Positions 15,259 to 63,663 of a stretch of DNA of 64,000 nucleotides are shown here, piece after piece; position 1 is the stretch's first letter; each line of letters starts with the position of its first letter. The stretch spans positions 124,001 to 188,000 of the forward strand of contig JALIHJ010000027.1 in the NCBI GenBank assembly GCA_022984795.1, in the 5' to 3' direction. The translations under genes were made by a program, and so were the position numbers. Under the pieces are notes generated by a model that saw only the letters and a program-made list of their open reading frames with translations, searched no databases and was not told the origin of the DNA. This DNA comes from Fabrea salina. Its lineage: Eukaryota > Ciliophora > Heterotrichea > Heterotrichida > Fabreidae.

Positions 15259-16245
15259 TTAAGAAAAGTGGATTTCAACAGTGTTGCTAATAACAGTTCT
15301 GCAAACTGGGCACTCAGAAAGTTGGTGGTTGCACTCCAAACACACACAAAGATGCCTACAAGGTTCAAAAATAACTTCTCTAGGGTTAGTTAAGCACACA
15401 CAGCACTCGTAACCAGGAGGCATTTCAACGTTTCTGTTGTGGATGCCCAGGATCCTTTCGTAGTCTTTTCTTTTCTTCTTCAAAAAGAACCCTCCTGCCA
15501 GTATTCCTAAAAACATAAGTTCAATTATGAGGGCAGTCAAGTAACCATTCCTTCTGTTTTCCAAAAGAGTTTCTTTGGGAAACCCTATGCTTTCGGCTAC
15601 CATCACTTTGTCTTTGCCTATTTGGATGACTTTGCCTATAGCAGTAATGTAAGAGTCAACTGCTAAAACCTTTTCTTTTTGCTTTTCGTAAACTTCAACT
15701 TCTATGGTGATTATTTTGGAAAGCAGAAAAGTCACCGAGGACAGCAGTGTTTTGATTATTTTGTTCCAAGAAAGACAATTGTAGCCTTTGTCAGAGTACA
15801 CTGTTTCTGCGTGGACTTCTGTCTTCTTGCAGGGTTTAACTGTAAGTGACTTTTTGTGTCCTGCCACTTCAAATTCTTTCTAGTTAGTTGTTACTTTTAT
15901 TGTTTTGGATTCTGACCTTATTCTAAACCCTAGCTGGTTGAACTTTTCACTGGTCAACTTAGAGTAAACTACTTGTTTATACTCTGAGTTGCTTAATTGG
16001 GACTGCGTAAGGGTTACTGAAAAACAATTAGCACTTCGAATCTTCCCAGAAACGCAGTAGCACCTTCCAGACAAACTTGAACTTCCCACTAAGTCATCTA
16101 TAGAAATATCTTTGGAAAACTTAAGTCTGTAGTAGTGCTGCGCAGTAAAAATCCCTAGCAAGCCAAATATAGTGCTGCCTACTGCCCCAACTGCAATAGC
16201 GAAGTTTTCTAACTTCTCTTGCTCCATTCCTGCTAAAATGTTCAT
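15259..16245 (-). CDS. MUL1: Mitochondrial E3 ubiquitin ligase MUL1-like, two exons
   Basis: Membrane-anchored RING E3 of 323 residues after removal of a 15-nt intron (15880-15894). Exon 1 (16245-15895) gives a transmembrane helix near residues 15-38 and the start of a GIDE/BAM-type domain; exon 2 (15879-15259) completes that domain, adds a second transmembrane segment (ALIIELMFLGILAGGFFL) and ends in a C3HC4 RING (CCVC...CRHLC...CPVC). Topology and length match MUL1/MAPL (about 350 residues), an outer-membrane mitochondrial ligase of dynamics and mitophagy. It sits 16 nt upstream of METTL17 on the same strand. Confidence 0.9.
15880..15894 (-). other. 15-nt intron (MUL1), phase 0
   Basis: Minus strand GTAACAACTAACTAG. 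Removal joins SKTIK to KEFEVAGHKK in frame and links the two halves of the MUL1 protein. A at position 10. Confidence 0.93.
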
Positions 16246-16255
16246 ATATTATTAC

Positions 16256-18547
16256 CTAATAATCGGTATTCCTAATCTTAGTTAGTTCACCGCTACTTTT
16301 AGCTTTTGAAGGTTCGTCAAGTAGGTCAGAAGTTTTGGAATGAGTAGTGTTTCTTCTTACTTTAGAACGGCGAGTCCACATATCCAAGTTAGTTTTCAAC
16401 TGCTCTAAGCAAGTTCGAGTTACTTCTTCTGAGTTCAAGTAAATGCACCAAACCTCGTAAAGGGGTATGCAGATGTTTTTTATAAACCCTGCTTGGCTTT
16501 TAGACACATCTGTAGTATTCCTGTCGCAGTACATAGACACAGGTTGGCTATGGGCCTTTTCAAGGTCGCCCTGGTTGAAAAATTCCTCACAAACTCTTTG
16601 ACTCCATCTATAATGGAGCTCTTCTGGCTTGCAGGAATGACCTATGTCAGCACACTTGAGTCCCATGGCTAAGACTTGGTTTTTGTCTTCATCAACTTGG
16701 ATATCAAAGTCGGACAAAGTGACAGCTCTTGTTTTAAACTTCCCAAGTATTTCAAAGTGACGCGACATGTCTGTTTGCAAAATCATTTCTATGATGAGTT
16801 TGCGGGCTCTGAACCAGTCACTATTGCTTAGATTCAGGAAGATGTTGGATTCTTCTTTGCTCATGAGTTTGAAAGTTCCTGCAGCATGCATATTTTCAAG
16901 TACACTGCTGTCGTTATACTCAATAGCGAGTTTGTCTCTGTTATTTACAAGGAACCTGTTAGTAACGGCAGGGTGTCCTAAGTCGTGTCCTAGTGCTGCT
17001 ATTATTGAGCTAAGGGTATCTAGGGTGTCTATCTTATTAAAGACGTCCGAATAACTAACGAAGAACAAAAGAGTGTGCAGAACGTCTGCAGCATGGCACG
17101 CGTTATGGTAAGGGTTTTGCTGGTAAGACTACATAAAACTTACTTTTTCTAGTTGTTGGAAGTATGTGTCGAACACCGAGTCAGGAATTCCAAAGGACTT
17201 GATTAGCCCCCACTTTTGGCCAAGGTACTTTGCTATGATGAAGATGCTTTGGCCTGTGGCTTCATAAACAAACCAAATGTCGAAGTTCCAGTTTTTGCCT
17301 ACGCCAGCTAGTACACTTTCAAGTTTATCTACTCCATAAGAACTGAAAGGAAAAGAAGGACTTCTTTCGTAAATTTCTTTCATAATAGTTCTTGTTTCCT
17401 CTGACTTTTCAGCTGAGTCCAAAGAAACCTCCATGAGCATTTGGGATATAAATGCTTTGTCTTGCTCGTCAATTTGATCAGTTTTGTTGAAATTCACGTG
17501 AAGGTTAGTTCCGTGGCCTATAGACTTTTTGATCTTTTCAATGTTTTTAGTAGCTTTTTTAAGGTCGTCTTTTACATCTTTGAACATGATGATTGAAATA
17601 GCTGACTTTATGGTGCTTTTCACATCATCACACATCTCCATGATCTGCTCGATATCAGAGTTGATCTTGGGAGAAACACTTACAATGTTATCTGTGCTGT
17701 TTGGTTTCTGGGAGTCTTCTTCTTTTTCTTTGCGCCAAAATAGTTGCCGAGCCCTGTACTCAGACTTCCTTGCTTCCACAACCAACAAAAAGTTAAAGAT
17801 CAGAGTAATCAAGAATTCGTTCATAAAGTAGTAGTAGTGGACTGAGGAAAATCCCAAGTGCATTCCTAAGTTCAGGAGTGTCCCAAATACAGTCAAAGCT
17901 AGAACGTATATGAAGCTTTCAAAAAGCACAATCCTGAACATAGCTAAAAAGCAACTCAGCAAAAAGCTTCCTAGTAAGTAACCTAGTTTCAAGTCTTCTC
18001 CAAGAATACCATTCAGAACCCTTTCGTCAATTAAAACAATGTGGGCTGCGATTAATAATCCAAGCACAAAGTACAATTCACGGTTGTACAACAAACAAAA
18101 GGGTACGTTTAGGACACAAATGAGAATGAGGATTCCGATGAAAAACACAAACCCCGAACTTAGAATAGTGCCAGTAAGAACCGCGTCAGAAATATCCCCT
18201 TGTGAATGCCGCAAAACTGAGAATATCACAGATATCCCCAAAAACCCGCATAAGAATATATAGAATACCATCAGGTTTGATTTAAACTCCGCAGAGGGCT
18301 TATCAAACCCAGGTTTCTCTCCATAAAGAGTAAGTCGGAACTTTTTTTCGAAATGTTTACTTGAAAAAGTAAGGTTGTTTGAGTCAATATCAATACTCTC
18401 CCTTTCATTATCCTGGTGGTCAAGTACTTTGTATGTGAGGGAACTGCTTTGTTGGTAAAATGACGACTCCACTTCTTTGCTTGGACTCGGCTTCACAACT
18501 GTTTTTTTCATTATGAAATTATGAACACAAAATTCCTTTAAATGCAT
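16256..18547 (-). CDS. Membrane cyclic-nucleotide phosphodiesterase, two exons
   Basis: Hydrolyses cAMP and/or cGMP; 758 residues after splicing out 17129-17143. The N-terminal half has about six transmembrane helices (about 80-270) and a cytoplasmic linker. The catalytic domain starts just after the intron: YHNACHAADVLH (about 475-486), then HDLGHPAVTN with the metal-binding HD at about 516-517, CADIGH with the second-metal Asp, and KSQAGF with the purine-clamp glutamine. All catalytic residues are present. Such membrane-PDE fusions are known in ciliates. A second possible start is the internal ATG of MKKTVVKPSP, 12 codons later. Stop TAG. Confidence 0.93.
17129..17143 (-). other. 15-nt intron (phosphodiesterase), phase 0
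   Basis: Minus strand GTAAGTTTTATGTAG. Removal joins QLEK to SYQQNPYHNACH and restores the first metal-binding histidine motif. A at position 10. Confidence 0.95.
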
Positions 18548-19965: not shown

Positions 19966-19969
19966 TATA

Positions 19970-21976
19970 TTAAAAGTTATTAGGCTCAATGTGTTCTATT
20001 CGGAGTGTATGGTCAGCACTTGCTGAAAACAGGTACTCTCCGTTCCATGCCAGCTTGTTTACGCACTTTCCGTGACTGTATCGTGTGAGTTCGCTTTTAG
20101 CATGAATTTCCCTTACACTGACTACTCCATTTTCCAGTCCAACTGCAATTATTTGAGGAGTTATCCAAGCACAAGCAGTCACTCCTGCAGAAAGTATTAA
20201 AGTGTCTAGGCATTCTCCTTGTTTGTTCCAGAGTTTAAGTCGTTTGTCTCTAGAGCCTGTTGAAAATATTTTGTCTTCAGGGTTCCACGCACAGCAGTAA
20301 ATCATTCTTGCGTGTGCTTGCGAGCTTTTGGAAACTCTGTACTCGCCATCCAAGAACTCATACAAACACCAGTTTCTGTCTCTCGAAACTGAAAGTAAAA
20401 ACTTGTCGTCGTGCGAAAAAGCTAAGTCAGTAACTGTCAAGTTATGGAACTCCAATGTTTGGAGTTGTGACTTCTGTTCTAAGTTCCACAAAAATACTTT
20501 AGCGTACTCAGCTGACTGGGCTTTTGAAGCTGAAGCTAGCACTGGATAAGTGTAGCCGGTAGCTAAAGTAACCACTTCGTATCCGTGCCCGTACAACTTG
20601 CAAGCTTCAGGCCATAAAGTGTGGTTAGTCAAAACATCTTCTGTGATTTTGTAGTTAGAAATGTCAATTTCTTGGTCGGTTGCTTTAGTCATGAGTCCCA
20701 GTGCTTGGCCTGCACCTGCAGTGACTCCCTCTAATTCAACTCCACACTCGTTCCTCAAAACATCTGCACTCACTTTAGAAAAGTCAAAGAGCCGCAGAAC
20801 TTTTTCATCGCCTCCTGAAACTAGAGTGTTTTTAAACAAAGCTATTGTGTTAAGGTCGTAGCCGTGAATCATGGGTCTAGAAACTTCTCTCCAGACTCCT
20901 CTAGCCTCTGACCAAAGTCTAGTTGTTTGGTCTAAACTTGAAGTAACTACAAACTGGGAGTTTGCCACTAAACCTGTAATGCCCCCAAAGTGTCCAGTTG
21001 GTGCAATTTGGCTTTTCCACTCTCCTTCTTCAAAGTTCCATCTGTAAAACCCACCTGAGTAACTATACGCCATAATTAGGTTGTCACTGCAAACTACTCC
21101 GAAAAACATATACTTAGAGTTGCCGATTTGCCCCATTGAAGCCTTTGGAACCCAAGTGCCCGACCTGGAATCTTCTGTCCAAACAAGTACACTGCAGTCA
21201 TGCGAAGAACTTACAATGCTGTTTCCCATCCACTTTAGGCAACTAACACAGTTAGAGTGCTCCATCAAAACAGCCTCCAGTTTGCAGGACATGTTAACTT
21301 GGTCTAAGGGGTAGAGTCCTTGGGAGTCCAGTGAAGACTCTGGAATTTCTTTGAAGAACTTCCAAATCCTTACTTGTCCTTCTTGTCCTCCACTTGCAAG
21401 AAACAACTCCTGGTTCAGTTCTTGGAACTCTAAAGTTCTGACTGTGCGGGAGTGCCCTTCTAGTGAGTTGAGAAAAACCCACTCTCCTTCTAACTTAGCG
21501 AACAAGTGAATTTTGGCGTCTGCACCTCCTAAAGCCAGGAAGCTAGTGGAGCAGTAAGTGATTTGCGCAGAGCACTCTTGAAGGTTGCTTGAAAAGCACA
21601 GCTCTGTTTCTAGTTCAAGTCTTTCGCCCAAACTGTACATTCTCACTATTCCATCAGAAGTAATAACACATACTTCTTTTCCTACTCCGATTTCGATCAG
21701 AGGACCTGAAAGTATGATTTCTTGGTGTTGTTGGTGGTTCTTCCAAACATAAAGCTTTTTGTCACAGCCCCCTGAAAACACATACTCGTTTGTATGCTTC
21801 ACACAGTTCACTTTGTCTTTATGAGCAGCTAAACTAAATGTTGTTGTGTGTGTTTCTAGGTTGTGCACCAGAACTTCTGTTCCTGAGCAGTAATACAACA
21901 AAGGATACGCTAGATCTGCAGCTCCAAAAGTCCCATTGCACCCTCCTGCTATCTGGACTGTCCTGACTTGTGCCAT
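19970..21976 (-). CDS. ELP2: Elongator complex subunit 2
   Basis: WD40-repeat scaffold of Elongator, which modifies wobble uridines in tRNA. 668 residues with about 12-14 WD repeats forming two propellers. Diagnostic text includes LWPEACKLYGHGYEVV, LASASKAQ, and TVTDLAFSHDDKFLLSVSRDRNW, all characteristic of ELP2 rather than generic WD proteins. Intronless. Start ATG at 21974-21976 after TAATAA; stop TAA at 19970-19972, only 4 nt before the next gene starts. Confidence 0.95.
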   Translation of the reverse strand: MAQVRTVQIAGGCNGTFGAADLAYPLLYYCSGTEVLVHNLETHTTTFSLAAHKDKVNCVKHTNEYVFSGGCDKKLYVWKNHQQHQEIILSGPLIEIGVGKEVCVITSDGIVRMYSLGERLELETELCFSSNLQECSAQITYCSTSFLALGGADAKIHLFAKLEGEWVFLNSLEGHSRTVRTLEFQELNQELFLASGGQEGQVRIWKFFKEIPESSLDSQGLYPLDQVNMSCKLEAVLMEHSNCVSCLKWMGNSIVSSSHDCSVLVWTEDSRSGTWVPKASMGQIGNSKYMFFGVVCSDNLIMAYSYSGGFYRWNFEEGEWKSQIAPTGHFGGITGLVANSQFVVTSSLDQTTRLWSEARGVWREVSRPMIHGYDLNTIALFKNTLVSGGDEKVLRLFDFSKVSADVLRNECGVELEGVTAGAGQALGLMTKATDQEIDISNYKITEDVLTNHTLWPEACKLYGHGYEVVTLATGYTYPVLASASKAQSAEYAKVFLWNLEQKSQLQTLEFHNLTVTDLAFSHDDKFLLSVSRDRNWCLYEFLDGEYRVSKSSQAHARMIYCCAWNPEDKIFSTGSRDKRLKLWNKQGECLDTLILSAGVTACAWITPQIIAVGLENGVVSVREIHAKSELTRYSHGKCVNKLAWNGEYLFSASADHTLRIEHIEPNNF

Positions 21977-22014
21977 TTATTACTAAGTAAAGAATTACTA
22001 TAATAATTTCTGGA

Positions 22015-22422
22015 ATGTTTGCTAGGAACTTACTGTGTAAACTCAAACCAGTTCTAAGGAACTTTAGCATGTCAGAGCACCAGTACCATCAGCTTGCCAA
22101 CAGCTTTTTGGAGGTAAAGTCTAGTTAGCATATTACAGAGCAACTAGAAGACTTGGGGTGTATTGAAGACATACAAACTACAGAAGGAGTTGTAACAGTT
22201 AAGTGCAGTGACAACAAAACCTTTGTGTTAAACAAACAGTCTCCAAATAAACAGATTTGGCTTAGTTCACCCTTATCGTAAAACTTACTTAGAGGCCCCA
22301 AAAGGTATGACTACATTGACGGTGCTTGGACTAGTTTAAAGGACGGCCACAAGCTTACAAATTTGCTTTCAGACGAATTTAGCAGCCTTTGCAAAACTCA
22401 AGTTAACATTGAAGAGGAGTAA
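22015..22422 (+). CDS. FXN: Frataxin, three exons
   Basis: Iron-binding activator of mitochondrial Fe-S cluster assembly. Two 15-nt introns (22114-22128, 22278-22292) split the frame, so it is easily missed. Spliced product is 125 residues. The N-terminus [18 protein letters not shown] is a basic presequence; I chose this ATG over the in-frame one at 22069 because it supplies targeting. The mature part has the acidic helix ([21 protein letters not shown]) and the family hallmark [20 protein letters not shown], followed by YDY and W. Exon lengths 99, 149 and 130 nt. Stop TAA; MPST starts 6 nt downstream. Confidence 0.96.
22114..22128 (+). other. 15-nt intron 1 (FXN), phase 0
   Basis: GTAAAGTCTAGTTAG, A at position 10. 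Removal joins SFLE to [10 protein letters not shown]. Confidence 0.95.
22278..22292 (+). other. 15-nt intron 2 (FXN), phase 2
   Basis: GTAAAACTTACTTAG, A at position 10. Removal creates the conserved SSPLSGPKRY block across the junction. Confidence 0.96.
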
Positions 22423-23274: not shown

Positions 23275-24513
23275 TTAACTAATCACCTTTTCAAAGCCTG
23301 AGTTCTTTATAGCTGAGTTTTTTTGCCCGTTTAAAATTCCAAATTGTATGTTTATCATGTCTTTGATCATCTGGATGTTTTGAAACTTCTTTTTAAGAGG
23401 GTAGTCTAGTAGTTGAGGCTCTTTGTTGACTTCTAGAAACCAAAGATGAAGGTTGCTGTCTAGCAGCAAGTCTACTCCAAATAACTCAAACACTCCTGGG
23501 TGGTGCAGTAGTTTGTGTTCTACTGCTTTGGCTAAGTGGTAAAGAATACTTTTGGCTGGCTTTCTTATAAAAGACTCAACCCAAGCAGCTTCCATTTCTC
23601 TAAACAAAATGCAGTGTTCTTCAAAGCTCTCTGAAAGTAAGTAAGTGTTAGTGAGGTGGGAATATTTCTAACTAATAGTTACGTTGTTACTGGTGTAGGG
23701 TTCTTTGGCTAACTGAATAAACCCGTCATGGTAAAGCACTGTGATTGGGTTTAAGTCTGCAATGAGCATAAACACCCTTATTCCTACTTTGTGGTTATTG
23801 TGCAAGTAAGGGTTTTGAATGTACTTTTGGAAAATTGCGTTTGGGTTTCCACAGAGGTTTTTCTGTGGGGTTTCTGAGTTCATTAGCTTAATTTCCCTGC
23901 CTCTGTGGGCATCTGTCTTGGTAATGTAAGAAACTTCTTTACTTGAGTTTTTAAGTAACTCGGTAGCTTGCAAGCACTCAAGTGGATCGTTTAGGTCCAG
24001 AGTTAGGGGCATGAAGTCCTTTGGAAAGCCTCCAAAGTAACTCTTCAGCAAAGAGTGGAATTTTTGTCTGTGAGTAAGGTAATTGTGTCCTGGAATGTGG
24101 TTGTACCTTTGCTGTTCGCACAAAAAGTGCCTTCCGATATGATGTCTTAAGTGCCACTCTGGCCAACTAGTCATGAAAATACTAATGTCTGTGCTAAGTT
24201 CTTTTTTAGACCCAAAGTGGTTTTGTAAAACCTGGGCTACTAGGCTAGTGTTTTTGTAGTCGGAATATATTTTGTGTTTGGGCTCTGCTGCATAGCAGTA
24301 GTCATCCTGGTTCACAATGTCTGAGTGAGGTGTTTTAACATAAGAACTATACATGTATTCTTTCCAAGCTTCACTATAGTAAACACTTTCCCAGTATATT
24401 CCTAATTTGTACTTTACAAATTTAGCTAGTGAGTGTCTCCAAGCATAAAGACTAATCAGTCCGAGGCATGCTAAATTCAAAAGCACAACAAATAAAATTC
24501 CTCTAAGCACCAT
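23275..24513 (-). CDS. TTL-family (tubulin ligase-like) enzyme with N-terminal membrane anchor, two exons
   Basis: ATP-dependent amino-acid ligase fold of 407 residues after removing 23668-23682. Core residues are intact: TKTDAHRGREI (P-loop-like), FQKYIQNPYL, KVGIRVFMLI and, in exon 2, FGVDLLLDSNLHLWFLEVN with the metal-binding D and ExN. The first 25 residues (MVLRGILFVVLLNLACLGLISLYAW) form a hydrophobic signal-anchor, which is not typical of tubulin glutamylases, glycylases or TTL, so the substrate may not be tubulin. It shares an 11-nt divergent start region with CFAP54. Confidence 0.87.
23668..23682 (-). other. 15-nt intron (TTL-like), phase 0
   Basis: Minus strand GTAACTATTAGTTAG, A at position 10. 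Removal joins YTSNN to KYSHLTNTYLLSES. Confidence 0.94.
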
Positions 24514-35252: not shown

Positions 35253-35612
35253 ATGCTCTTTTCAAGAAACCCCAGGTTCAGGACACTTTCTAAAGTATAC
35301 GGGTTTTTTTTAGTCATAGGCTCTGGAAGTTGGTTTTGGCTGAAGAAAAGTAATCTTTAAAAAGATTCACTTGCAATTTCGCAGTTTTGCAAAACCCAAG
35401 TAAACGAGTTCCAGAACCAACAGTCTTTGTACCACAAGTGGGAAAAAGCTTACAAGGACTCCTGTCTGAATCAACAAGTTGCTTCTAAAACACACTCCAA
35501 ACAAGTCAACGAAATCCTAGAAAAAATAAAGCACGACCAACTCAAGAAGCAACAGATAATGGACGAAGAAGAGTTTGTGAGGATGAAAATCTCAAAGAGT
35601 TTTTGGAAGTAA
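35253..35612 (+). CDS. Small mitochondrial membrane protein, two exons, unknown
   Basis: 114 residues after removal of a 15-nt intron (35350-35364). The N-terminus MLFSRNPRFRTLSKVYGFF is a basic presequence-like segment that runs into a hydrophobic stretch (VYGFFLVIGSGSWFWL). The rest is a charged helix (KWEKAYKDSCLNQQVASK) ending ISKSFWK. No family recognised. Size and topology resemble respiratory-chain assembly factors, but that is only a guess. It lies 23 nt upstream of the mitochondrial ribosomal protein uL24m on the same strand. Stop TAA. Confidence 0.75.
35350..35364 (+). other. 15-nt intron with atypical 3' end, phase 1
   Basis: GTAATCTTTAAAAAG. A at position 10 fits the rule, but the end is AAAAG, not TAG. 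Removal joins WLKK to NSLAISQF and opens a single frame to 35612. Confidence 0.75.
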
Positions 35613-35635: not shown

Positions 35636-36211
35636 ATGCTTTGCAGGATAGCTAGGTTCTTTGCTTACAGACCTAAACAAGTTCCTCTTAAAAGGTGGAA
35701 CATCACTACAGGTGACGAAGTAGCTGTGATATCAGGGAAAGACAAGGGCAAAACTGGGAAGGTCTTTAAAGTCAAGCGGAAGCACAACCTTGTCTTTGTT
35801 TCAGGAGTCAACATTAAAACCAAACACAACCAACCTAGCATGGAGGTCCAAGAAGGTTCTCGTGAACAAAAAGAGTTCCCCATCCACGTTTCAAACGTAG
35901 CTTTAATTGACCCTGAAACTAGTAAACCTACTAGGATTTCTTACGGGTTCTTAGAAGAAGGAACTAAAGTAAGGATTTCTAAAAAAAGCGGGGCAATGAT
36001 TCCTAAACCTGAAAGGCCTGAAGTTAAGTACATCCAAAGACACTCTAGCAAACGTAAGTGACACTTAGAGGACGGAATTAAAGACACTCCTCCTGACCTA
36101 GCTACTTCAGTGACTTATGAAGGAGAGGACTTTGAGGCTGTAAAAGCTAACTTTGAAGAGCACATCAAGAAAGTTGAAGAGCAAGCTTCTTGGCTTGTCT
36201 TTAAAGACTAA
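35636..36211 (+). CDS. MRPL24: Mitochondrial large-subunit ribosomal protein uL24m, two exons
   Basis: 186 residues after splicing 36054-36068. The N-terminus MLCRIARFFAYRPKQVPLKRW is mitochondrial-type. The KOW motif follows (TGDEVAVISGKDKGKTGKVFKV), then NLVFVSGVNIKTKHNQPS and EFPIHVSNVALIDPETSKPTRI, all standard for L24. Exon 2 adds an acidic tail (about 47 residues) ending SWLVFKD. The stop TAA (36209-36211) overlaps the stop of the convergent polymerase-like gene. Start ATG follows TTATAA. Confidence 0.95.
36054..36068 (+). other. 15-nt intron (uL24m), phase 1
   Basis: GTAAGTGACACTTAG, A at position 10. Without removal the frame ends at the internal TGA two codons in. Confidence 0.93.
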
Positions 36212-37457: not shown

Positions 37458-38270
37458 ATGTCAAGTGAACTATACGACTTTGACTTTGAGTTGCCAGAAG
37501 ACCCCCAAAGTATTTTACAAAACCTCAGTATACACAAAGAGTCCAACTCTTGGGAATTACTTGCACCTTCTTTTTACACTAAACAAAAACTAACCCAGTC
37601 ACAGCCTTTTGCGTTTAAGTAAGCTTTACTTAGTCCTTTCACGCCAATTAAGTCTGAAGAAATAGAAAGCGAACCTAAACCTATCAAGAGTTACTCTGTT
37701 CCTTTTGAAGTCAAAGAAGTTCCCCTTGAACCTATTTGCAAGCAGCCCAACCAAAGCGAGTACTTCCACTTAATTCAGGCTTTGTTTCAGGAAAGACCTA
37801 TTTGGCTCAAAAATGCCCTAATTCAGAACTTGCCCAACCACGAAGCCCTTTCACAGAACCACTTAAAACAGTAACAACCACTTAGCATATTAGCTTGGAT
37901 TGCATACAGCTTTGAAAGCGGACCTTGGAGAAACGCTTACGTAAAACTAGGCTTCAACCCCAAAGAACACCCCTCGAGTGTCATATACCAAGTTATTGAC
38001 TTCAGATCGCGTGAAGAAGCTCCAGTGGGAAACAGGGGTTTGTACGACTTTACTTTTTCTAGTTTGCCCAAACAACAAGGCCAACTGTATCAGTTTTGCG
38101 ACATCAAAGACGACAAAATCAAGCAACTACTACTAAGTCCGGAGTCTCTGACTGGGGAGTGTAATGTAAGCTTTACACAGAAAAAAACTGGCTGGCTAAC
38201 TAAAGAAGCTTATGAAAACATCAGAGCCATAGTCAAACAGATTTACTTCAAACTCAAGATGAAGAGTTAG
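37458..38270 (+). CDS. GTF3C5: TFIIIC subunit 5-like (tau95), short form, three exons
   Basis: RNA polymerase III factor subunit that contacts the A-box. 260 residues after removing introns 37619-37633 and 37871-37885. The core DNA-binding block is clear: RPIWLKNALIQNL, HLKHILAWIAYSFESGPWRNAYVKLGFNP and YQVIDFRSREE, matching the family pattern 'GPWR...GYDPR...YQ.IDFR'. Animal and yeast proteins are 500-650 residues, with an N-terminal triple-barrel dimerisation domain; here only about 90 mostly charged residues precede the DNA-binding block, so that domain seems absent or separately encoded. Stop TAG. DENN protein follows by 12 nt. Confidence 0.82.
37619..37633 (+). other. 15-nt intron 1 (GTF3C5), phase 2
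   Basis: GTAAGCTTTACTTAG, A at position 10. Joins QPFAF to NPFTPIKSEE. Confidence 0.93.
37871..37885 (+). other. 15-nt intron 2 (GTF3C5), phase 2
   Basis: GTAACAACCACTTAG, A at position 10. Joins QNHLK to HILAWIAYSFESGPW, a conserved block. Confidence 0.94.
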
Positions 38271-41338: not shown

Positions 41339-41954
41339 TTAACGGCCTTCTTGTTGTGGAGGACCTCCAGTACTCATGAATATAAAAGCTCCTATCAGCA
41401 TTAACCACCACTACATAGTTACTTACGTATTTTCTGAAAAAGCCTGGTTCGGGGGGTTCCTCTACTTTGGGAGGAGCAAAGTAAGGCTTAGAGGGTTCTT
41501 TTGGCATAACTGCGTAAGCTGTAGTTTGGGGCTTAAGTGCAGTGGTGAGGGTGCTGCAACTAGCAGTGGCTCCAAAGTACTCAAGTGCTAAGACTTCTCC
41601 AGTTTCTTGGTTTACTTGGAGTTGGAGTGTGTCTAGTAAGTCTGAGCCCAAAAGATTGCAGGAAGGTACAACTGCTTGGAGGAACTTGCCTTTGTCTCCT
41701 TCACTGTACATTCCAACGAAGTAAAAGCCGTTAGGGTTGACTTTTTGCTTGGCAAAGGATGTGTTGACTACTGATACATTGGGTTTCCTTCGCTTGTCTC
41801 CGTAAGAAGACACCAAAACGTTTCCTCTTTCTTGCCAAGTTGTTCCGTCGTAAGACTGGTAAAGTTTGAAACTCAGTTTGATAGTGCCGGCAGGAAAGTC
41901 TGTGTTTTCGAACCCTAGAACAAAACAGCTTAGTAGCATAAACACTAAGTTCAT
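41339..41954 (-). CDS. EMC10: ER membrane complex subunit 10, two exons
   Basis: Lumenal/membrane subunit of the EMC insertase; 199 residues. Start ATG at 41952-41954 gives a signal peptide (MNLVFMLLSCFVLGFENTDF), then a beta-rich lumenal domain (IKLSFKLYQSYDG...GFYFVGMYSEGDKGKFLQAVVPSCNLLGSDL). A 16-nt intron (41411-41426) leads to the last exon encoding the membrane helix and the typical Gly/Pro-rich end (WWLMLIGAFIFMSTGGPPQQ). Without the intron the reading continues falsely to 41265. The start lies 7 nt from the start of the divergent gene. Confidence 0.92.
41411..41426 (-). other. 16-nt intron (EMC10), phase 0
   Basis: Minus strand GTAAGTAACTATGTAG. A at position 11, still six bases before the 3' end. 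Removal is needed to reach the WWLMLIGAFIFMSTGG end of EMC10. Confidence 0.93.
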
Positions 41955-51648: not shown

Positions 51649-51655
51649 ATTATAA
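51649..51655. promoter_or_regulatory. 7-nt divergent start region, helical-repeat / START-like
   Basis: CAT-ATTATAA-ATG: TATAA directly before the plus-strand ATG, seven bases between start codons. Confidence 0.6.
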
Positions 51656-52416: not shown

Positions 52417-52689
52417 ATGAATCCCCAATTAAAAGAACTTTTGGGAGTGGGTGCCGGATTTTTGGCACTGGTGGGTGCCTACAAAGGGTACAAGAAGTAC
52501 TCCAAAATAAAGAGTTCAGTTATTCTTCAACACTGCAAGGATGAAGTCATTGACCTCAAAGAACTTAGCTCAATGGAAAGCTACGCGCTCTACAAAGGTT
52601 GTTTGAGAGACATCCAAGCTGAAGGGGGGTACCTAGGGTACTCCCTAAGAGGTCCTTTCAAACTGGCCGAGAAGAGTAATTACACTTAG
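52417..52689 (+). CDS. Small single-pass membrane protein, 90 aa
   Basis: Hydrophobic N-terminus (LKELLGVGAGFLALVGAYKGYKK), then SVILQHCKDEVIDLKELSSM and ESYALYKGCLRDIQ. The membrane helix followed by a beta-like 'YALYKGCLRD' weakly recalls the start of the MUL1 GIDE domain, but no RING follows. No firm family. ATG 2 nt after the preceding stop (TAA-AT-ATG). Its stop TAG (52687-52689) overlaps the stop of the convergent coiled-coil gene. Confidence 0.7.
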   Translation: MNPQLKELLGVGAGFLALVGAYKGYKKYSKIKSSVILQHCKDEVIDLKELSSMESYALYKGCLRDIQAEGGYLGYSLRGPFKLAEKSNYT

Positions 52690-53693: not shown

Positions 53694-54977
53694 ATGGAAG
53701 GAAAATTCAATCAAGGCGTGTTGAAACTTCAGCAGCTAAAAGTAAATGATTTACGAAACGTTTGCAAAAGACTAAAACTTAAGTGTTCTGGCAAAAGAAC
53801 TGAATTGGAAAGCAGACTCATAACCTTTCTGCTGACTCCAGAAGGCCAAAAGGAAGCAAGGGAAAGTCTAGACCCTTCTTTTATAAGTAACTTCTACAGC
53901 CACTCCACCCAACTCACAAACTGCATTTGCGCGGGAAAGGGCGCAGGCCAAACTATTTCGTGCACTCGCTGTAAAGGACTTTCCCACGTCAACTGCATTT
54001 CGCATTGTGCAAAAATGAACCACTACGAATGTCCAGAATGCCAGTTTTTGCAAATGGAACCACTCGACCAAGTAGTAGAATGCATTGCTAAACCATTTTT
54101 AGTAGTCTCCAAAGGCATTTCAAACAACAACACACAGCACTTCGAGTTCCCTCAAAACAAGTTAGAGCAGTTATTTAAGGCCAAAGGGGAACTTCAAGTC
54201 CAAGTAAGGTGTCTCAAACTAGACGGATCAGGGTTCACTCAGCAATGGCCTAAGTTAGGGTGCCTTGTTGTGAACGAAGCACTTGCACAGGAATTCAGAC
54301 CTCCTCAAAACCACAACGCCAAAAAGCGCAAGGATGAACCACTTAACGTCACTATGATTCTGAAAAACCAAAACTCTATTTCTGTAGTTAAAATGAATGA
54401 TCCAGACACCTACGTGGCTGGGGTTTTTCTTGTGAGTATCAAAAAGGAAGAAGAAGTTATCCGTGCAATTAAACTAAAACCTAAAGTTTCCATCGAAGAA
54501 GCCAAACTTTTCGTAACTAAAAAACTAAACCTTGGAGACTCAGAAATAGGAACTCAGTGTGTAAAGCTTTCAGTAAAGTGTCCTTTCACAATGACTTTGA
54601 TGGAAACTCCTGTGAGAGGAGTGAACTGTGACCACATCCAGTGCTTCAACTTAGACCCCTTTATTCGGCTCCAAAGGTCTTCTAGAGTTAACAGGTGGAA
54701 GTGTCCTATCTGCAAAGGATTTGCCTTTAACTTAGTAGTTGACGAGTTCTTTGAAACAATCATAGAAGAAGCAAGGAAAGTTGAGGATCCTCATGGAGTG
54801 GAACTTTACAATGACGCAAGTTACAGAATCATTGACTTTGAGGAGTACTTAGTTAACCAAGAAAAAACTACTCAGAAAAACCCTTTCAAAAGAAAGCTAA
54901 CTGAAACCAACCCAATTCCTTCAAAAAAACTAAAGTCTTCTCCCGAAGGGTCTTCTTCGTGTCCAATAGAACTTTAA
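53694..54977 (+). CDS. SIZ/PIAS-type SUMO E3 ligase
   Basis: 427 residues with the plant/yeast SIZ1 order. SAP domain at about 10-45 (LKVNDLRNVCKRLKLKCSGKRTELESRL). PHD finger at about 82-125 (CICAGKGAG...CTRCKGLSHVNC...YECPEC). A PINIT-like region follows at about 140-270. The SP-RING lies at about 290-345 (VKCPFTMTLMETPVRG, CDHIQCFNLDPFI, WKCPICKG). A basic tail ends KRKLTETNPIPSKKLKSS. It would direct SUMO to nuclear substrates. Start ATG follows AGTATAA. Confidence 0.93.
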   Translation: MEGKFNQGVLKLQQLKVNDLRNVCKRLKLKCSGKRTELESRLITFLLTPEGQKEARESLDPSFISNFYSHSTQLTNCICAGKGAGQTISCTRCKGLSHVNCISHCAKMNHYECPECQFLQMEPLDQVVECIAKPFLVVSKGISNNNTQHFEFPQNKLEQLFKAKGELQVQVRCLKLDGSGFTQQWPKLGCLVVNEALAQEFRPPQNHNAKKRKDEPLNVTMILKNQNSISVVKMNDPDTYVAGVFLVSIKKEEEVIRAIKLKPKVSIEEAKLFVTKKLNLGDSEIGTQCVKLSVKCPFTMTLMETPVRGVNCDHIQCFNLDPFIRLQRSSRVNRWKCPICKGFAFNLVVDEFFETIIEEARKVEDPHGVELYNDASYRIIDFEEYLVNQEKTTQKNPFKRKLTETNPIPSKKLKSSPEGSSSCPIEL

Positions 54978-54984
54978 TATAACT

Positions 54985-55290
54985 TCACTTTAACTTATTT
55001 TTCGTATAAAAAGCCAAAAGTCCAGAAACCAACTCCAAAGGGTCCTTTTGCCTTAAAGTTTCCAAAAAAGGCGGCAGTTCAGTTGGTTCGGTCCCAGTTA
55101 CTAGTGCTTGGGCAAAAGCCTTAATGCTAGAGTCTTCTTCTGGAGAATCTTGGTGGAGTTTTTCAATTTTTTGAAGGGGAATGTTGAAGTAGGGCTTTTC
55201 TTCAACTGACTCGCAACTATGGGCTTGTTCTCTGATTTTTTTAACTCGGGAATGAATAGCTCTATGTTGTTGTTCTAAGTTTTGTTCCAT
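54985..55290 (-). CDS. Small helical protein, 101 aa, unknown
   Basis: MEQNLEQQHRAIHSRVKKIR starts a short charged, helical protein with no recognised domain. It sits between IWR1 (5 nt upstream on the same strand) and the SIZ-like stop (7 nt away). Stop is TGA. Start context TAATAAATATG fits the local rule, which supports a real gene. Confidence 0.7.
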   Translation of the reverse strand: MEQNLEQQHRAIHSRVKKIREQAHSCESVEEKPYFNIPLQKIEKLHQDSPEEDSSIKAFAQALVTGTEPTELPPFLETLRQKDPLELVSGLLAFYTKNKLK

Positions 55291-55902: not shown

Positions 55903-57039
55903 TTAAGTTCTGTTAAGCATTATAGACTCCCCAGACTGCAAACTAAGTGGTCTTCCTGAAAAAATTCCAGTGTTCTTGAGAAACTCACTTTCTTCGGGAG
56001 CAGAAAGTGACTCATCAAACACTTTCTTCAGTGAGTTGAGTTTACTGATTTTAGGGGTTGAAATGCTGAGCACAGCTTCTTGGGCAGGTGAGACGGTATA
56101 AAACTCCGTGTTGGAAGTTGCAGGGACTTTAAAACTAAAATGCCTTTTTTGCCTTTTATAACAAATAATGTTGTAGATGTTTAAGAACCAGTTCAAGTAA
56201 AAAGGGTTGTAGTTGGGGGCATTCCAAACCTTTTTCAAAACTTCATAAGTAGTTTGACTACTAAGTACCAAGTAAGTGTGGAAACATGTTAGTCCCAAAA
56301 CGAACCAGGAAATGCAAACTGAGTAAATCAAAAATACTACAGTTCCTCCTGTTTGTTCTAAAGCTTCCATAAAAGCTTCACTAGCTTCTAAGTTTTTTTC
56401 TGACTGGATTTCGTTTGAAACTTTAATTAAGTACCGGACGCTTATAACTGCAGAAAAAATAATGCTGAGCGAGGTGCTATACAAAAACCCTATAAAGAAC
56501 CTATAGTTTCTTTTAGCAACACAGTTGCCGAGCCAAGGGCAGTGATGGTCAAACCTTTCAACACACAAGTCACAGTCAGGGCAGTGAGAACAGCGCGGAG
56601 GGCGCAAAAGGTAGCAGGTTTCGCAGTACTTGAGTTTCAAGTTCCTTCCCAAAGCCGGGACCAAAAAGTGTTTTTGGTGCAAAGGGGAGGGTTTCGATGA
56701 TTCTTTTTTAGTAACGTAGGAAAAGGTAGGCGCGCCCAAAGGACCTTTTGCAAATGGAGGTTGTTGCATAGGCAAGTACCCAGGGTCTGTAGTCGAAGTT
56801 ATTACAAGAAAACACAAAGAACTAAACGTAAAAACCAAGTGAGTTCCAGTTACTAACCAGGGAAACTCAATCGATGTTGAGAATAGAAAAACTAACGAAG
56901 GCACAAAAATCATGCAGAAAGTTATAACTGCTCTGTGGACGTCTGGTCTAAGTAAACATTACCCTGACATAATTCTTCCTCTGCAGAAGAACTTGTTTTT
57001 GCCTGGCCACTGTTGGTAGGATTTAATTCCAAGTTCCAT
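55903..57039 (-). CDS. DHHC palmitoyltransferase, two exons
   Basis: Protein S-acyltransferase, 373 residues after removal of 56948-56962. Exon 1 gives the family start YQQWPGKNKFFCRGRIMSG, completed by PDV in exon 2. Four membrane helices, the TTDPGYLP (DPG) motif, and the cysteine-rich domain KYCETCYLLRPPRCSHCPDCDLCVERFDHHCPWLGNC with DHHC at about 159-162. C-terminal TTxE-like and aromatic motifs are not obvious. Start ATG at 57037-57039, 14 nt from the divergent gene. Confidence 0.95.
56948..56962 (-). other. 15-nt intron (DHHC), phase 2
   Basis: Minus strand GTAATGTTTACTTAG, A at position 10. Joins GRIMSG to PDVHRAVITF. Confidence 0.94.
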
Positions 57040-58486: not shown

Positions 58487-59786
58487 TCAGTCATTTTTAG
58501 TTAACATACTTTGGAGTGAGTAAAGAAGGTCAATGGCTTCTTTGGTAGAGGTAAGGTTGAATTCTTTGTGTGAAACCTGAGAAAAAACTAGGGTTTTAGT
58601 CCGGTTTACAAGGTTCAACATTTTTTCAAAGGACTTTTGTTTCTGCTTTTTGGGAACAAACTTCTCTCCAAAAGACTCTATGAATTTTTCTAAACCTGTT
58701 CTGCGCTGGGTCTTCCTTGTAGGGGAAGAAGGAAGTACCTCCGGGCTGTCTTTTAGGTACCTTACTGCACAGGGAATGAGCTTTTCCACACTAACTTCTT
58801 CAAAAGGCTTGACAAGAATCTCCAGAAGCATAGAAGAGTCCGCACTCAGTACTAAATAAACCTTACATTGTTCACGCTTGGCCACTAGCAAAGCCACCGA
58901 AAAGTAGTTAAGTAGTTTGAGTTCCTGCATCTCTCTCCTAGTTGCAAACACTGCATCCCAAACTTTAATAGTGTCCAAAATGCTAAACTCCCTGCTAAAC
59001 ATGCACCTCAGCCACCTGATTAAGTACAGTTGGGACTCTATGTTGTTTCTTTGAAGGTGTTTGTAAAGCTCAGAGTCAACTGCTTGCAAGATTCTGTGGT
59101 GGATGTAGTGGCATCGTCTTAAAACAGCAGAAGCTTCTCCAGAGCTGCTTTTGTCTACTCTGACAACTTCTGAAAAGGCGTCAGACTCTTGCCCAATCAC
59201 TTGGCTAAACAAGTCTTCTTGCCCCAGTTGCATAATTTTGTCAAACAACCAGTACAAGTCAGGCTCCAAGTGCTCCCAACTGCAAATTCCATCAATAGTT
59301 TCTGACTCAGTAAGCCCCACGTAGAGTATTATGGCAGCAATTTCGTTCATTCCTTGCTTGTAGCCTATTTTGTGGTTCATGCTCCACACAAACAAAGCGT
59401 TTTGGAGAGTTTCTTTGTTTTCTTCTGACTGAAAAAGTTGTAGTTTTTGGTGAGTGCGGTCTACGTCAAGACGGATAAGGTTCTTCATTTCTTGGTTTCT
59501 AAAGTAAGTGTTCCAGGGGTTCTAACTGATTATTGCTTACTGAGTTGGAAACTGAAAGTGGGTTGTTTATCAAGGGGTCTAGTTCTTCGTTCAGTTTTGG
59601 TTCTAGTTTAGCTTTCAATTCGTAGTACTCCTGTCTTTTGTCCCAGGTTGTTTGGACCCAGGCTTCGTAAGGACCACTGAACATACCTAACAGAATCCTC
59701 CAAGTGGCTATTCGGTTGTTTAAAAGTCCGTCCAAAGCCTTTTTTGTAAGTTCTTCGAAACTTATCTGTGAGTACCAAGGCTCCAT
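58487..59786 (-). CDS. TBC-domain Rab GTPase-activating protein, two exons
   Basis: 426 residues after removal of a 19-nt intron (59522-59540). Exon 1: TWRILLGMFSG and the linker (EAWVQTTWDKRQEYYELK). The junction restores NPWNTYFRNQEMKNLIRLDVDRT, the TBC block carrying the arginine finger. The glutamine finger follows (GYKQGMNEIAAIILYVG), then ELYKHLQRNNIESQLYLIRWLRCMFSREF. The layout is closest to TBC1D5/TBC1D13-type proteins. Both catalytic fingers are intact. Stop TGA at 58487-58489. Confidence 0.92.
59522..59540 (-). other. 19-nt intron (TBC), phase 0
   Basis: Minus strand GTAAGCAATAATCAGTTAG. Only removal of 19 nt (1 mod 3) restores the frame to NPWNTYFRNQE. A is six bases before the 3' end, as in the others. 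An inner 15-nt GTAAG...CAG unit would leave a stop in frame. Confidence 0.85.
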
Positions 59787-60165: not shown

Positions 60166-63100
60166 CTACTTAGCAATCCAGTCTTCTTGTTGCACAAGAC
60201 ATACACATAGCGGAATTTCTAGGATCTTGTCAATCTTAGTGTGGAAGAGTCCAAAAATAAAACTGTCTTTAAGGATTTTGCCCTTTGGGGAAATTTTAAG
60301 AATTCCAGGGTGTGGCTGCGAAACGGTTTGAGTTAAAAGAGTGTGTTCTTGGCACCTACTTACGTAAAGACTTACTTCGTCTTCTTCAGTTTGAGGAGGA
60401 ATTTCATAACCCTTAATCCAGGGAATCTCCCACTTAACTTGCTTGTTAAAAGCAGGAACCCAGAGTTCTGACCCGAAACTGCCTGCGTCAGGCATTTCTT
60501 TAAGCATGTCTTCTATTTTGTAAAACAAGTCTGTTTTGAAGTACTTAAGTTCTGAGTTGAGTTCTTCAAGCATCCCTCTGTACCTTATGAAAAAAGCTTG
60601 CAAGTTAGGCGAACTTGTAGGCACTCTGAAAAACTCAGTGTTGTCGTCCCCTTTGTAGTGCTTTATGTCTTTGTTTTTGAACCTCAGGAACTTGTAAACC
60701 TTTTCATTAACTGTGTGGTCAACATGCGTTGCACCTACCCACTTAAGGTTTAAGTCTAGGATTGAACCACTTAGTTTAGCTTGAGTTGCGCTGAACTTTA
60801 GGTTTTTCTGGCTGAAAAATGACTGGATTTCTTGAGTGTTTTCTGAAACAAGATTTTCAATCAAGGGAAAGTTAAAGGAGTCCGTAGAGTTAATTATCTC
60901 TAGAACGTCTGAAATGTCTCCTTGGAGTTTAGTTTTGCAGTAGTCAGTTAGTTTGATTTGACCTTTGTCTAGTTTTCCAAACAAACTAAGTATGGAACTT
61001 AGTAGGATCTGTCTGTTTCCAACTTGAATCATTTCGTTTACAGCTTTTTCGTCAGCGTCTAAGTTTTCTCTGGTGGTTTCTATCAAGCACCCGTTTAGTA
61101 AGCTCAGTTTAGGTTCCTCAATTTTCAAACTGCTTTTTAGGTTATTGGGCCGAGTTTTGCCCATCACATCAATTTTGATTCCAAACTCTGGAATTGAGTA
61201 CTGAGTTTTCCACTTAAACTTGAGTTCGGTGTACTTAGCTTTGATTTCTCTGGGGAGTTCAGGGATTCCTCCTGTCATGTAAAGGTTCACTCTGATTTCC
61301 TGGCAAGGGTCTAGTTTCCACAAAAACTCCACTGCTTTGTCTAAAATCATCATGTAAGCAGAGTCACTTAAAGAAGAGTAGTGGACAAGCACTAACTGCC
61401 TGTCTTCTTTGCTAGGGTCGAACTTAAAGGCTAAAAGTCCAACAATCTTGTTTTGGGACAAAGCCCAGTACCAACAAGGGTCTGTGCCTTTTTCAAGTTC
61501 CTGTTCTAAAATGTCAATTTGGGGCAAAACTTGTAGTTGTAGCTCAGGAATGTTTTCGTAGTAGTCTTCTAGGATCTTGCTCATAGTTTCTTCGTAAGCT
61601 TTCACAGGCTTAAAGTCCACTGAAGTTAAGTTTTCAAGTACTTCTAAGTCGGCAAACTCAAACTTATAGTCCTCTTCTTCTTTTTTGCTGGGAATTGGTG
61701 ACTCTTCAGACTCGTTTGGCATTTCGTTGCTTCCAATGCTGTATTGGGCAGGACTGTGTATTCCTGGAGTAAATATTTCATTAGTGTTGTCTTCAGCCAC
61801 TTCAGGATGTATGTTTAGTGTTGGAACTGTTCTTTTCTTTTCATTGTCCCTTTCGAACTCTAGTATGTTTTCAGCTACTTTCTGCAACCAGTCCAAGCCA
61901 ATAAACTCGCTTAAGTACTCGTTGTAAATCATGTCAGCAATTTTGTAGTTCTCTAATTCTTTTTCCCTTTGTTCTAGCTTAAGTCTTTCTTCTTCGTCCT
62001 GAATCGACTTTCTTTTAGTAACAAGGGCTTTGTTGATGCTTTCGTCAGCCATGTGGTCAAGTTTTGTTTCTTCAATAACAGTTTCTACTAAGTTCCTATA
62101 AATCATGTCTGAAATCTGCGAGTCTATGATTTCTAGGGACTTTTTGAACCTTTCTTCTTCTTCTTTGCGTTTTTTGTCTTCAAGTGCTTTTTTGCGGTCT
62201 TCTTCTTCTTTGCGTTTTTTGTCTTCAAGTGCTTTTTTGCGGTCTTCTTCTTCTTTGCGTTTTTTGTCTTCAAGTTCTTTTTTGAGTTTGAGTTCTTCTT
62301 CTTGCTTTCTCTTGCGTTCTTCTTGTTCTTTGCGTTTTTTCTCTTCAAGCTCAAGTCTTTTTTTCATTTCTTCTTCATTTTTTTTGCGTGCAGCTTCTTC
62401 CTTTTGTTTTTTCTTGAGTTCTTCCATTTCTTTTTTGAACTTTAAAGCTTCTTCTTTTTCCTTGCGTTTTCTCTCAGCAGCTTCTCTTTTCCTTCTTTCA
62501 GCGTCTTCGAGTTCTTGTTTTTTTTTCTCATCTTCTTCAGTTTTGCGTTTGGCAGCTGCTTCCCTTTCTAGTTTTATCCTTTGCTTTTCTTCTTCGACTT
62601 CGTCTTCAACTATCTCTTCTACTATGGTTTGGAGTCCGTTTCCCATAATCATTCTGTAAATGTAGTCTTGGAGCTTTTCGTTTATGTCGGAGTAAGAGTC
62701 TCCTAACTCTTGGTTCCTGGTTTCCTCCAGAATCACCATTTCTGCAAGTCTAACTCGCCGGATCAAAGCTGAGTGCAAAGGAATCACTACTTGACCGTCA
62801 GATAAAAAGTAGTTGTGCTCCTTTTTCTTAGAGGAACTTGAAGACCCCTTTGGCTTTGAAGGAGTTATCAAAAGCGGGTCTGGTTGCTCTGAAAACTTCA
62901 GAATCTTCGCAAACTCTGACTCAAGCAAAAAGTCCATGTCGTTTTTCATCTTGCACAGGTAGTTTTCACCTTCCCACAAAAAAGGAATTGGCTTGGGGTT
63001 CTTCAAAGCGTCCTTGTGCATCATCAAGGCATAAGCTAGCTTCTCCCGCCAACGCACTATACTTTCGCAGGCATTCAGCGTCAACATTCTGTGAGCGTGT

Positions 63101-63663
63101 AGTAACTCTGCGCATTCTAGAGTGACGTCTTTCATGGTTTCCCACTTAGGAGCTTCTACGAGGTACGAAAGCATTTCGTGAATGCTGTTTAAGCTTTCTT
63201 CCCTAGCTGCAATGGCTTTAAGTGCTATTTGGGTAGAACTTCTGTGTTCTTTTAAGTCTTCAATCTCTTTAGATATGATTGGAAGTGCCTTGTTGACGTG
63301 CAGCGAAAAAACGGCTTCTCTGAAAGGGATCCGCTGGGCTTCGGGTATGTTGTTGTTTTCCCACTCCTTTTCAATTTCATTCACTAAGTTATTGAAAATC
63401 TGGTCGTCACCCAGCAAGTTTTTTTGCGAACTCTTGGCTGAGTTAACACCTCTAGTTCTTGCGGAGTTGTCCCGGGATTTGGAGCCTCTTTTGTCTCGGC
63501 TTTTGAGTTTCCTAACAACGCGTTCTACGTTTAAATTACCTGAAGGCTCAAATTCTGAATTCAATCCTTCTAGTCTGCCAAGCCAGAACCTATCGTCCCA
63601 AGGTTGCTTTTTCTAATTAGTTTTTACTTTTTTACTCGATCCTTTCACCTTTGGTGTTGCCAT
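60166..63663 (-). CDS. Large coiled-coil protein with possible GNAT-like region, two exons
   Basis: 1160 residues. Exon 1 is only 12 codons (MATPKVKGSSKK), followed by a 15-nt intron (63613-63627) and KKQPWDDRFWLGRL in exon 2. Residues about 330-500 are a charged single-helix/coiled coil (KKRKEEEDRKKALEDKKRK repeats, partly a 45-bp DNA repeat). Between about 660 and 830, WYWALSQNKIVGLLAF...LVLVHYSSLSDSAYMMILDKAVEFL resembles a GNAT acetyltransferase fold, without a clear acetyl-CoA loop. No orthologue recognised. Stop TAG. Confidence 0.78.
62161..62284. repeat. 45-bp tandem repeat, about 2.7 copies, coding
   Basis: Unit starts at 62161, 62206 and 62251, each beginning TTCTTTGCGTTTTTTGTCTT. 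On the minus strand each encodes a 15-residue KKRKEEEDRKKALED coiled-coil unit. The first two copies are identical by eye, so the duplication is recent. Confidence 0.95.
63613..63627 (-). other. 15-nt intron (large coiled-coil gene), phase 0
   Basis: Minus strand GTAAAAACTAATTAG, A at position 10. Joins a 12-codon first exon to the main exon. Confidence 0.9.

What the first reader, a model, noticed from the sequence alone, without database searches (positions are those of the whole stretch)
15880..63627. Thirteen tiny introns, nearly all exactly 15 nt, with an invariant A six bases from the 3' end
I found 13 introns by rejoining broken genes: eleven of 15 nt, one of 16, one of 19. All start GTAA, twelve end TAG, and all have A at position -6. 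The 15-nt class is known from Stentor and Blepharisma. The branch point, polypyrimidine tract and both splice sites must all fit in 15 bases, near the physical limit for a spliceosome. The fixed -6 A even when length changes suggests the distance from branch A to 3' site is the measured quantity.
Basis: partly seen in the sequence, partly recalled or inferred. Interest (0 to 1): 0.78.

Follow-up and report, generated by a model that had tools for sequence, protein, structure and literature searches.

The report
Fifteen-nucleotide introns of a heterotrich ciliate

Summary
A gene finder told only GT-AG chose 15 nt for 8 of 12 short introns, against 0 of 97 under 14 decoy dinucleotide pairs. Homology favours removal at 8 of 9 testable junctions and disfavours it at one. 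They are best read as U2-type introns of a standard-code heterotrich ciliate.

The class is published. In Stentor coeruleus the branch A is at position 10 of 15-mers and 11 of 16-mers, -6 in both (PMC9505925).

Added here: a frame-keeping, stop-less 15-mer (58852-58866) invisible to broken-gene reading; the 19-mer as a natural test of distance rules; and extreme packing, 41 gene models covering 98.6% of the window.

The parts
15880..15894 (-). 15-nt intron, phase 0, GTAACAACTAACTAG, in a RING-finger membrane protein gene (15259-16245)
   Evidence: in-frame TAG removed; chosen without motif; only frame-restoring GT-AG pair of 25 nt or less; junction outside the Pfam domains found, so homology untested
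17129..17143 (-). 15-nt intron, phase 0, GTAAGTTTTATGTAG, in a cyclic-nucleotide phosphodiesterase gene (16256-18511)
   Evidence: best PDB match 211.1 bits spliced, 204.2 retained
22114..22128 (+). 15-nt intron, phase 0, GTAAAGTCTAGTTAG, in the frataxin gene (22015-22422)
   Evidence: Frataxin_Cyay 115.1 bits spliced, 107.3 with this intron retained
22278..22292 (+). 15-nt intron, phase 2, GTAAAACTTACTTAG, second intron of the frataxin gene
   Evidence: 115.1 bits spliced, 103.6 with this intron retained
23668..23682 (-). 15-nt intron, phase 0, GTAACTATTAGTTAG, in a tubulin-tyrosine-ligase-like gene (23275-24513)
   Evidence: in-frame TAG, chosen without motif; AGAINST: Pfam TTL 108.8 bits spliced, 111.8 retained
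35350..35364 (+). 15-nt intron, phase 1, GTAATCTTTAAAAAG (AAG acceptor), in a small gene (35253-35612)
   Evidence: in-frame TAA; chosen without motif (chose a 51-nt intron from the same donor); protein not given to a family search; weakest of the 13
36054..36068 (+). 15-nt intron, phase 1 with in-frame TGA, GTAAGTGACACTTAG, in the mitochondrial uL24 gene (35636-36211)
   Evidence: 165.3 bits spliced, 157.3 retained against 6z1p_Ay; spliced alignment gap-free across the junction
37619..37633 (+). 15-nt intron, phase 2, GTAAGCTTTACTTAG, in a TFIIIC (Tau95) gene (37458-38270)
   Evidence: Tau95 99.2 bits spliced, 98.5 retained; matched stretch starts at profile position 4 spliced, 51 retained
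37871..37885 (+). 15-nt intron, phase 2, GTAACAACCACTTAG, second intron of the Tau95 gene
   Evidence: 99.2 bits spliced, 88.6 retained
41411..41426 (-). 16-nt intron, phase 0, GTAAGTAACTATGTAG, in an EMC10-like gene (41339-41954)
   Evidence: found by eye, not by the gene finder; spliced form matches EMC10 (Pfam 19.2 bits, below the curated 23; PDB 6ww7_I E=1.2e-4, alignment crossing the junction); retained form, cut at the gene end, has no Pfam match
56948..56962 (-). 15-nt intron, phase 2, GTAATGTTTACTTAG, in a DHHC palmitoyltransferase gene (55903-57039)
   Evidence: 158.6 bits spliced, 154.9 retained against ZDHHC9; spliced alignment gap-free across the junction
   Evidence: RabGAP-TBC 107.2 vs 106.0 and RabGap-TBC_2 44.8 vs 39.0 bits spliced vs retained; 6d0s_A 50 vs 46.3 bits; the two best PDB matches stop before the junction and hardly change
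59522..59540 (-). 19-nt intron, phase 0, GTAAGCAATAATCAGTTAG, in the same TBC gene; contains the nested 15-mer GTAAGCAATAATCAG
   Evidence: only frame-restoring GT-AG pair of 25 nt or less; chosen without motif, not; junction just outside the Pfam match, homology untested
63525..63539 (-). unproven candidate: 15-nt phase-1 motif with no in-frame stop, GTAATTTAAACGTAG, in gene 60166-63663
   Evidence: motif and a motif-rewarding gene-finder run only; host protein has no Pfam match
63613..63627 (-). 15-nt intron, phase 0, GTAAAAACTAATTAG, in gene 60166-63663
   Evidence: in-frame TAG; chosen without motif; no homologue to test

Best explanation
These are spliceosomal (U2-type) introns of a heterotrich ciliate's macronuclear genome, of the 15/16-nt class known from Stentor and Blepharisma. 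Shown here: position, length, GTAA...TAG ends, the A at -6, restoration of reading frames and of conserved proteins. Inferred from Stentor and general splicing knowledge: GUAA is read by U1 and then by U6, the A at -6 is the branch nucleotide held out of a weak U2 duplex, branching gives a lariat loop of about 10 nt with a 5-nt tail, and TAG is the acceptor. Because the 5' splice site (1-6) and the branch region (about 5-11) overlap, U1 and U2 can hardly sit on the intron together, so recognition is probably a hand-over and not a cross-intron bridge. The ends also supply a safeguard: in phase 0 the TAG and in phase 2 the TAA of GTAA is an in-frame stop if a 15-mer is retained. Only phase 1 lacks a built-in stop.
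For: Thirteen elements matching one consensus. Gene finding with GT-AG only: 8 of 12 introns at 15 nt, 0 of 97 for decoys. No 15-mer motif in 45,282 bases of sense coding DNA of 22 of the 30 intron-free models. Homology better when spliced at 8 of 9 testable listed junctions and at 58852. Ciliary genes (CFAP54, dynein light chain, FAM161) and a standard code (stops TAA 31, TAG 6, TGA 3; one further model's end was set wrongly and not counted). Stentor precedent: BP-A at 10 in 15-mers and 11 in 16-mers (PMC9505925). Heterotrichs stated to have about 95% 15-bp introns, the rest 16 (PMC11441545).
Against: No RNA data. The TTL domain scores 3.0 bits higher with intron 23668 retained, and Tau95 loses only 0.7 bits when 37619 is retained. 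Four listed introns (15880, 35350, 59522, 63613) have no usable homology test. 35350 ends AAG. The 16-mer was not chosen by any gene-finder run. A 19-nt intron lies outside the 15/16 range stated for heterotrichs. No Rfam family, snRNAs included, matched in the window, so snRNA pairing could not be examined. The heterotrich assignment was not tested by a tree.
Confidence: 0.95

Rival explanations
1. Stop-codon readthrough or a context-dependent genetic code, not splicing: the ribosome reads through stops that lie in frame-keeping 15-mers, adding five residues.
For: Eleven of 13 are 15 nt, keep the frame and contain an in-frame stop, so readthrough would also yield a full-length protein; TTL scores slightly better with the insert.
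Against: The 16-mer and 19-mer shift the frame. The stops sit inside GTAA...AG elements with A at -6. TAA, TAG and TGA all end gene models here. Insertion lowers the match of PDE, frataxin (two), Tau95 (two, one by 0.7 bits only), uL24m and DHHC.
Confidence: 0.02
2. The 59522 'intron' is not 19 nt: it is a sequencing or assembly indel, or a 15-nt intron (GTAAGCAATAATCAG) used in an alternative, frame-shifting way.
For: The nested 15-mer fits the consensus except CAG for TAG; published heterotrich introns are given as 15 or 16 nt; the 19-mer was chosen in motif-free but not; GTAA...TAG elements of 19 nt are as common in the window (19) as those of 15 nt (18).
Against: It is the only frame-restoring GT-AG pair of 25 nt or less; GTAA...TAG with A at -6 and length 13, 16, 19 or 22 occurs in only 0.5% of 45-nt stretches of sense coding DNA; using the 15-mer gives an early stop.
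Confidence: 0.15
3. Some are germline DNA elements (IES-like) removed from DNA and not RNA introns.
For: Ciliates do remove short DNA segments from coding regions in development (PMC9942806, passages).
Against: GT-AG ends with a branch-like A at fixed distance are splicing signals; the IESs described in the passage seen are bounded by repeats that include TA and peak at 26-28 bp in Paramecium, the shortest case named there. No second, uninterrupted copy was looked for.
Confidence: 0.02

Closest known systems
15/16-nt introns of Stentor coeruleus (PMC9505925: abstract and sections 1, 2.1, 2.5, 2.6 read)
   Same: Length (8173 of 8806 are 15 nt, 633 are 16), GUA start, mostly AG end, A at position 10 or 11 (that is -6), standard genetic code, a minority of genes with introns (18%)
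   Different: Less AT-rich here (70% in the 13 introns, against 75.6%); one 19-nt intron here; GC3s 40.9% here against 28.3% for S. coeruleus (PMC8927777, passages); 11 of 41 gene models have introns here
15/16-bp introns of Blepharisma stoltei (PMC9942806: passages read)
   Same: Predominantly 15 and 16 bp in a gene-dense macronucleus
   Different: Blepharisma reads UGA as tryptophan and is 66% AT; this window uses TGA as a stop and is 60% AT
16/17-nt introns of mikrocytids (PMC10245619: part of the abstract and passages read)
   Same: Very narrow length range near the lower limit, conserved sequence
   Different: Parasites with highly reduced spliceosomes; 16 or 17 nt and not 15
Loxodes magnus introns (PMC11441545: passages read)
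   Same: Tiny introns in the sister group of heterotrichs
   Different: Mean 19.3, mode 17 bp, 3n lengths depleted, under 16 bp negligible

Membership tests
heterotrich 15/16-nt intron class | dominant length 15 nt with a minority of 16 | tested here: met
   11 of 13 at 15, one at 16, one at 19; the 19-mer is an exception
heterotrich 15/16-nt intron class | GTA start and AG end | tested here: met
   13 of 13 GTAA and AG; 12 of 13 TAG
heterotrich 15/16-nt intron class | A at -6 (position 10 of 15, 11 of 16) | tested here: met
   13 of 13
heterotrich 15/16-nt intron class | removed from mRNA | not testable with these tools
   no RNA data; frames and proteins restored
heterotrich 15/16-nt intron class | A at -6 is the branch nucleotide | not testable with these tools
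   needs lariat sequencing
macronuclear genome of a heterotrich ciliate | phylogenetic placement among heterotrichs | not tested
   held no genome for the window; one viral-contig scan found no relative; no tree was built
Stentor coeruleus itself | base composition of its genes (GC3s about 28%) | tested here: not met
   GC3s 40.9% against 28.3%
Blepharisma | UGA read as tryptophan | tested here: not met
   TGA ends 3 gene models; tryptophan is TGG 199 times in the 25 training ORFs, which stay open for 330 codons or more with TGA as a stop

The most novel reading that the evidence does not exclude
In a heterotrich with almost only 15-nt (3n) introns, the intron ends themselves serve as the retention alarm: GTAA and TAG supply a stop in phases 2 and 0, while phase-1 introns without a stop exist, are silent to frame-based gene finding, and should be under selection against. 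The 19-nt TBC intron, which holds a consensus-like 15-mer ending CAG inside it, is a natural competition experiment that would show whether the spliceosome measures from the branch A to the acceptor, from the donor to the branch A, or simply prefers TAG.
Probability: 0.3. Interest if true: 0.5.

Novelty: new member of a known kind. Interest (0 to 1): 0.3.

Why it matters
It adds a standard-code, very compact genome stretch of about 40% GC to those with the smallest known spliceosomal introns, and so separates the intron rules (15 nt, A at -6) from the AT-richness of Stentor and Blepharisma. The 16-mer and 19-mer make the question 'which distance does the spliceosome measure?' testable by lariat sequencing of two named introns. 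The stop-less phase-1 intron warns that frame-based annotation of such genomes can keep five-residue inserts that are really introns.

Tried and rejected
Rejected as introns. 35609-35624, a 16-mer with A at -6: it overlaps the stop of the gene before it, and the next gene, uL24m, starts after it. Elements chosen by gene-finder runs and not accepted: 72-106, 22239-22292, 35350-35400, 41495-41549 and 54961-55013 (longer than 30 nt); 81-106, 22265-22294, 37613-37633 and 41521-41542; 21856-21874, 36208-36218, 41545-41563, 41721-41734 and 52676-52689. They lie in small genes read on the wrong strand, or cost nothing to leave out; 35350-35400, 37613-37633 and the two at 22239 and 22265 contain an accepted 15-mer. 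Other 16-mers with A at -6 (8 in all): 6422, 24402 and 31458 lie in open frames that they would break; 9840 and 22121 are antisense; 21983 is undecided; 41411 is accepted; 35609 is rejected as above.

A phase-1 excess of stop-less 15-mers: 2 observed in 62,628 bases of coding DNA of 40 genes against 0.41 expected under synonymous shuffling, 17 of 300 shuffles reaching 2 (one small gene there was read one base out of frame). That is suggestive only. Antisense to genes the same motif also occurs twice (45686+ and 59310+).

Led nowhere: Rfam at gathering and relaxed thresholds gave no family; ARAGORN found no tRNA; a viral-contig scan with the dynein light chain found no relative. I ran no structure prediction and did not use the genome-collection scan, since that collection holds prokaryotes only.

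Considered and not tested: pairing between GTAA and the TTAC seen in three introns (22278, 37619, 56948); with such short arms composition alone could give it.
Full report
WHAT WAS CHECKED. I trained a codon model on 25 long open frames, ran a gene finder that knew only GT-AG and one with a motif bonus, and inspected ambiguous regions in three frames. The 16-mer was found by eye; no gene-finder run chose it.

MORE THAN CHANCE. (1) GTAA...TAG elements number 18 at 15 nt against a mean of 8.9 per length at 17 other lengths (12-30, without 15 and 16); length 19 also has 19, so the count is not unique. The A at -6 is: 14 of 18 at 15 nt and 8 of 12 at 16 nt, against 47 of 151 at the other lengths and 7 of 19 at 19 nt (Fisher for 15 nt p = 0.00018). 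Of the 14, twelve lie on the sense strand of genes (ten of the thirteen, plus 58852 and 63525) and two are antisense (45686+, 59310+; positions, genes). (2) With lengths of 10-30 allowed, the gene finder chose 12 GT-AG introns, 8 of them 15 nt; with 14 decoy dinucleotide pairs it chose 97, none of 15 nt. Seven of the eight are exactly on the list; the other, 22124-22138, is a shifted alternative. Six listed introns were not recovered exactly in that run (22114, 22278, 37619, 41411, 56948, 59522); 59522 was recovered. (3) In 45,282 bases of sense coding DNA of 22 of the 30 intron-free models no 45-nt stretch contains the 15-mer motif. (4) For 8 of 13 the listed intron is the only frame-restoring GT-AG pair of 25 nt or less; longer ones exist at every locus.

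HOMOLOGY ACROSS JUNCTIONS. Spliced against retained, in bits: PDE 211.1/204.2; frataxin 115.1/107.3 and 115.1/103.6; uL24m 165.3/157.3, gap-free across the junction against 6z1p_Ay (I recall 6z1p as the Tetrahymena mitoribosome, the tool gives only the molecule name); Tau95 99.2/98.5 and 99.2/88.6; DHHC 158.6/154.9, gap-free against ZDHHC9; EMC10 19.2 (below the curated 23) against no match, with the spliced C-terminus aligned to EMC10 of 6ww7. Against: TTL 108.8 spliced, 111.8 retained. So 8 of 9 testable listed introns are favoured, 37619 only by 0.7 bits. Four of the 13 (15880, 35350, 59522, 63613) could not be tested this way. Any five-residue insert tends to lower a score, so the gap-free alignments weigh more than the differences.

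A MISSED KIND. A 15-nt intron in phase 1 keeps the frame and need not contain a stop, so reading for broken genes cannot find it. One such element, 58852-58866 in the TBC gene, is supported: RabGAP-TBC 107.2/106.0, RabGap-TBC_2 44.8/39.0 and 6d0s_A 50/46.3, whose alignment runs on through the junction only when spliced. The two best PDB matches (1fkm_A, 2g77_A) stop before the junction and hardly change. Another, 63525-63539, has no homologue to test. The phases of the eleven listed 15-mers are 5 in phase 0, 2 in phase 1 and 4 in phase 2. All eleven carry a stop, but that is how they were found.

WHOSE GENOME. Ciliary genes (CFAP54, dynein light chain, FAM161), the standard code with TAA, TAG and TGA as stops (31, 6 and 3 of 41 models; one model's end was set wrongly and not counted), and 15-nt introns point to a standard-code heterotrich. 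It is not Blepharisma (UGA = Trp, 66% AT), and by composition not S. coeruleus (GC3s 28.3%, against 40.9% here). Fabrea salina is a candidate: it uses the canonical code (PMC10553269, passages), and a paper titled 'An extremely streamlined macronuclear genome' is cited for it (seen only as a reference title; that it has tiny introns is my recollection of the abstract). This was not tested.

MECHANISM. The likely mechanism is ordinary U2-type splicing on a minimal substrate: donor GUAA, branch A at -6 preceded by U or C (13 of 13), TAG acceptor. The lariat loop would be 10 nt with a 5-nt tail, as proposed for Stentor. The overlap of donor and branch regions suggests sequential and not simultaneous binding of U1 and U2; this is inference.

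THE DISTANCE CLAIM. Two introns differ from 15 nt. The 16-mer has A at -6 and T at +10, which favours the branch-to-acceptor rule. The 19-mer has A at both, and its first 15 bases form a consensus-like intron ending CAG; using it would shift the frame into an early stop. It therefore does not discriminate. Stentor already provides the statistic: 442 of 633 16-mers with A at position 11.

STANDING. The length class, the ends and the -6 A are published for Stentor, and the length class for Blepharisma. The statement that heterotrich introns are about 95% 15 bp and the rest 16 (PMC11441545, passages) makes the 19-mer an outlier worth checking. In other ciliates short 3n introns are mostly under-represented and enriched in stops (PMC5014332, passages; the words Stentor and heterotrich do not occur in that text). 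Paper searches made. The 2017 Stentor genome paper and the Fabrea genome paper are not held.

Noticed in passing
1-64000: Extreme packing: 41 gene models cover 98.6% of the window; median gap 4 nt tail-to-tail, 10 nt tandem, 21 nt head-to-head. If the models are right, promoters and 3' ends must overlap neighbouring genes. Several small models have no family match.
   Followed up: partly
33548-33551, 36208-36211, 52686-52689: Three convergent gene pairs share a 4-nt overlap in which the two stop codons interlock (TTAG or CTAA read as a stop on both strands).
   Followed up: no
37452-37458, 41954-41962, 51648-51656: Divergent start codons only 5-7 nt apart, leaving little room for separate promoters or leaders.
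   Followed up: no
coding sequence of 40 genes: Asn, Asp, His and Tyr codons end in C at nearly the same 83% (0.829, 0.831, 0.827, 0.835), while Phe is 36% C and Cys 64% C. These are the four boxes read by queuosine-type tRNAs (recalled).
   Followed up: no
21983-21998 (-): GTAATTCTTTACTTAG, a 16-mer fitting the intron consensus with A at -6, lies six bases upstream of the start codon of a WD40 gene; it could be a leader intron or chance.
   Followed up: partly
35003-35252: The longest gene-free gap (250 nt, between divergent genes) has no Rfam match even at E up to 1.
   Followed up: partly
15093-15171 and 62153-62284: Coding tandem repeats with units divisible by three: 12 bp, 6.6 copies, in the Rsm22-like gene, and 45 bp, 2.9 copies, in gene 60166-63663.
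   Followed up: no
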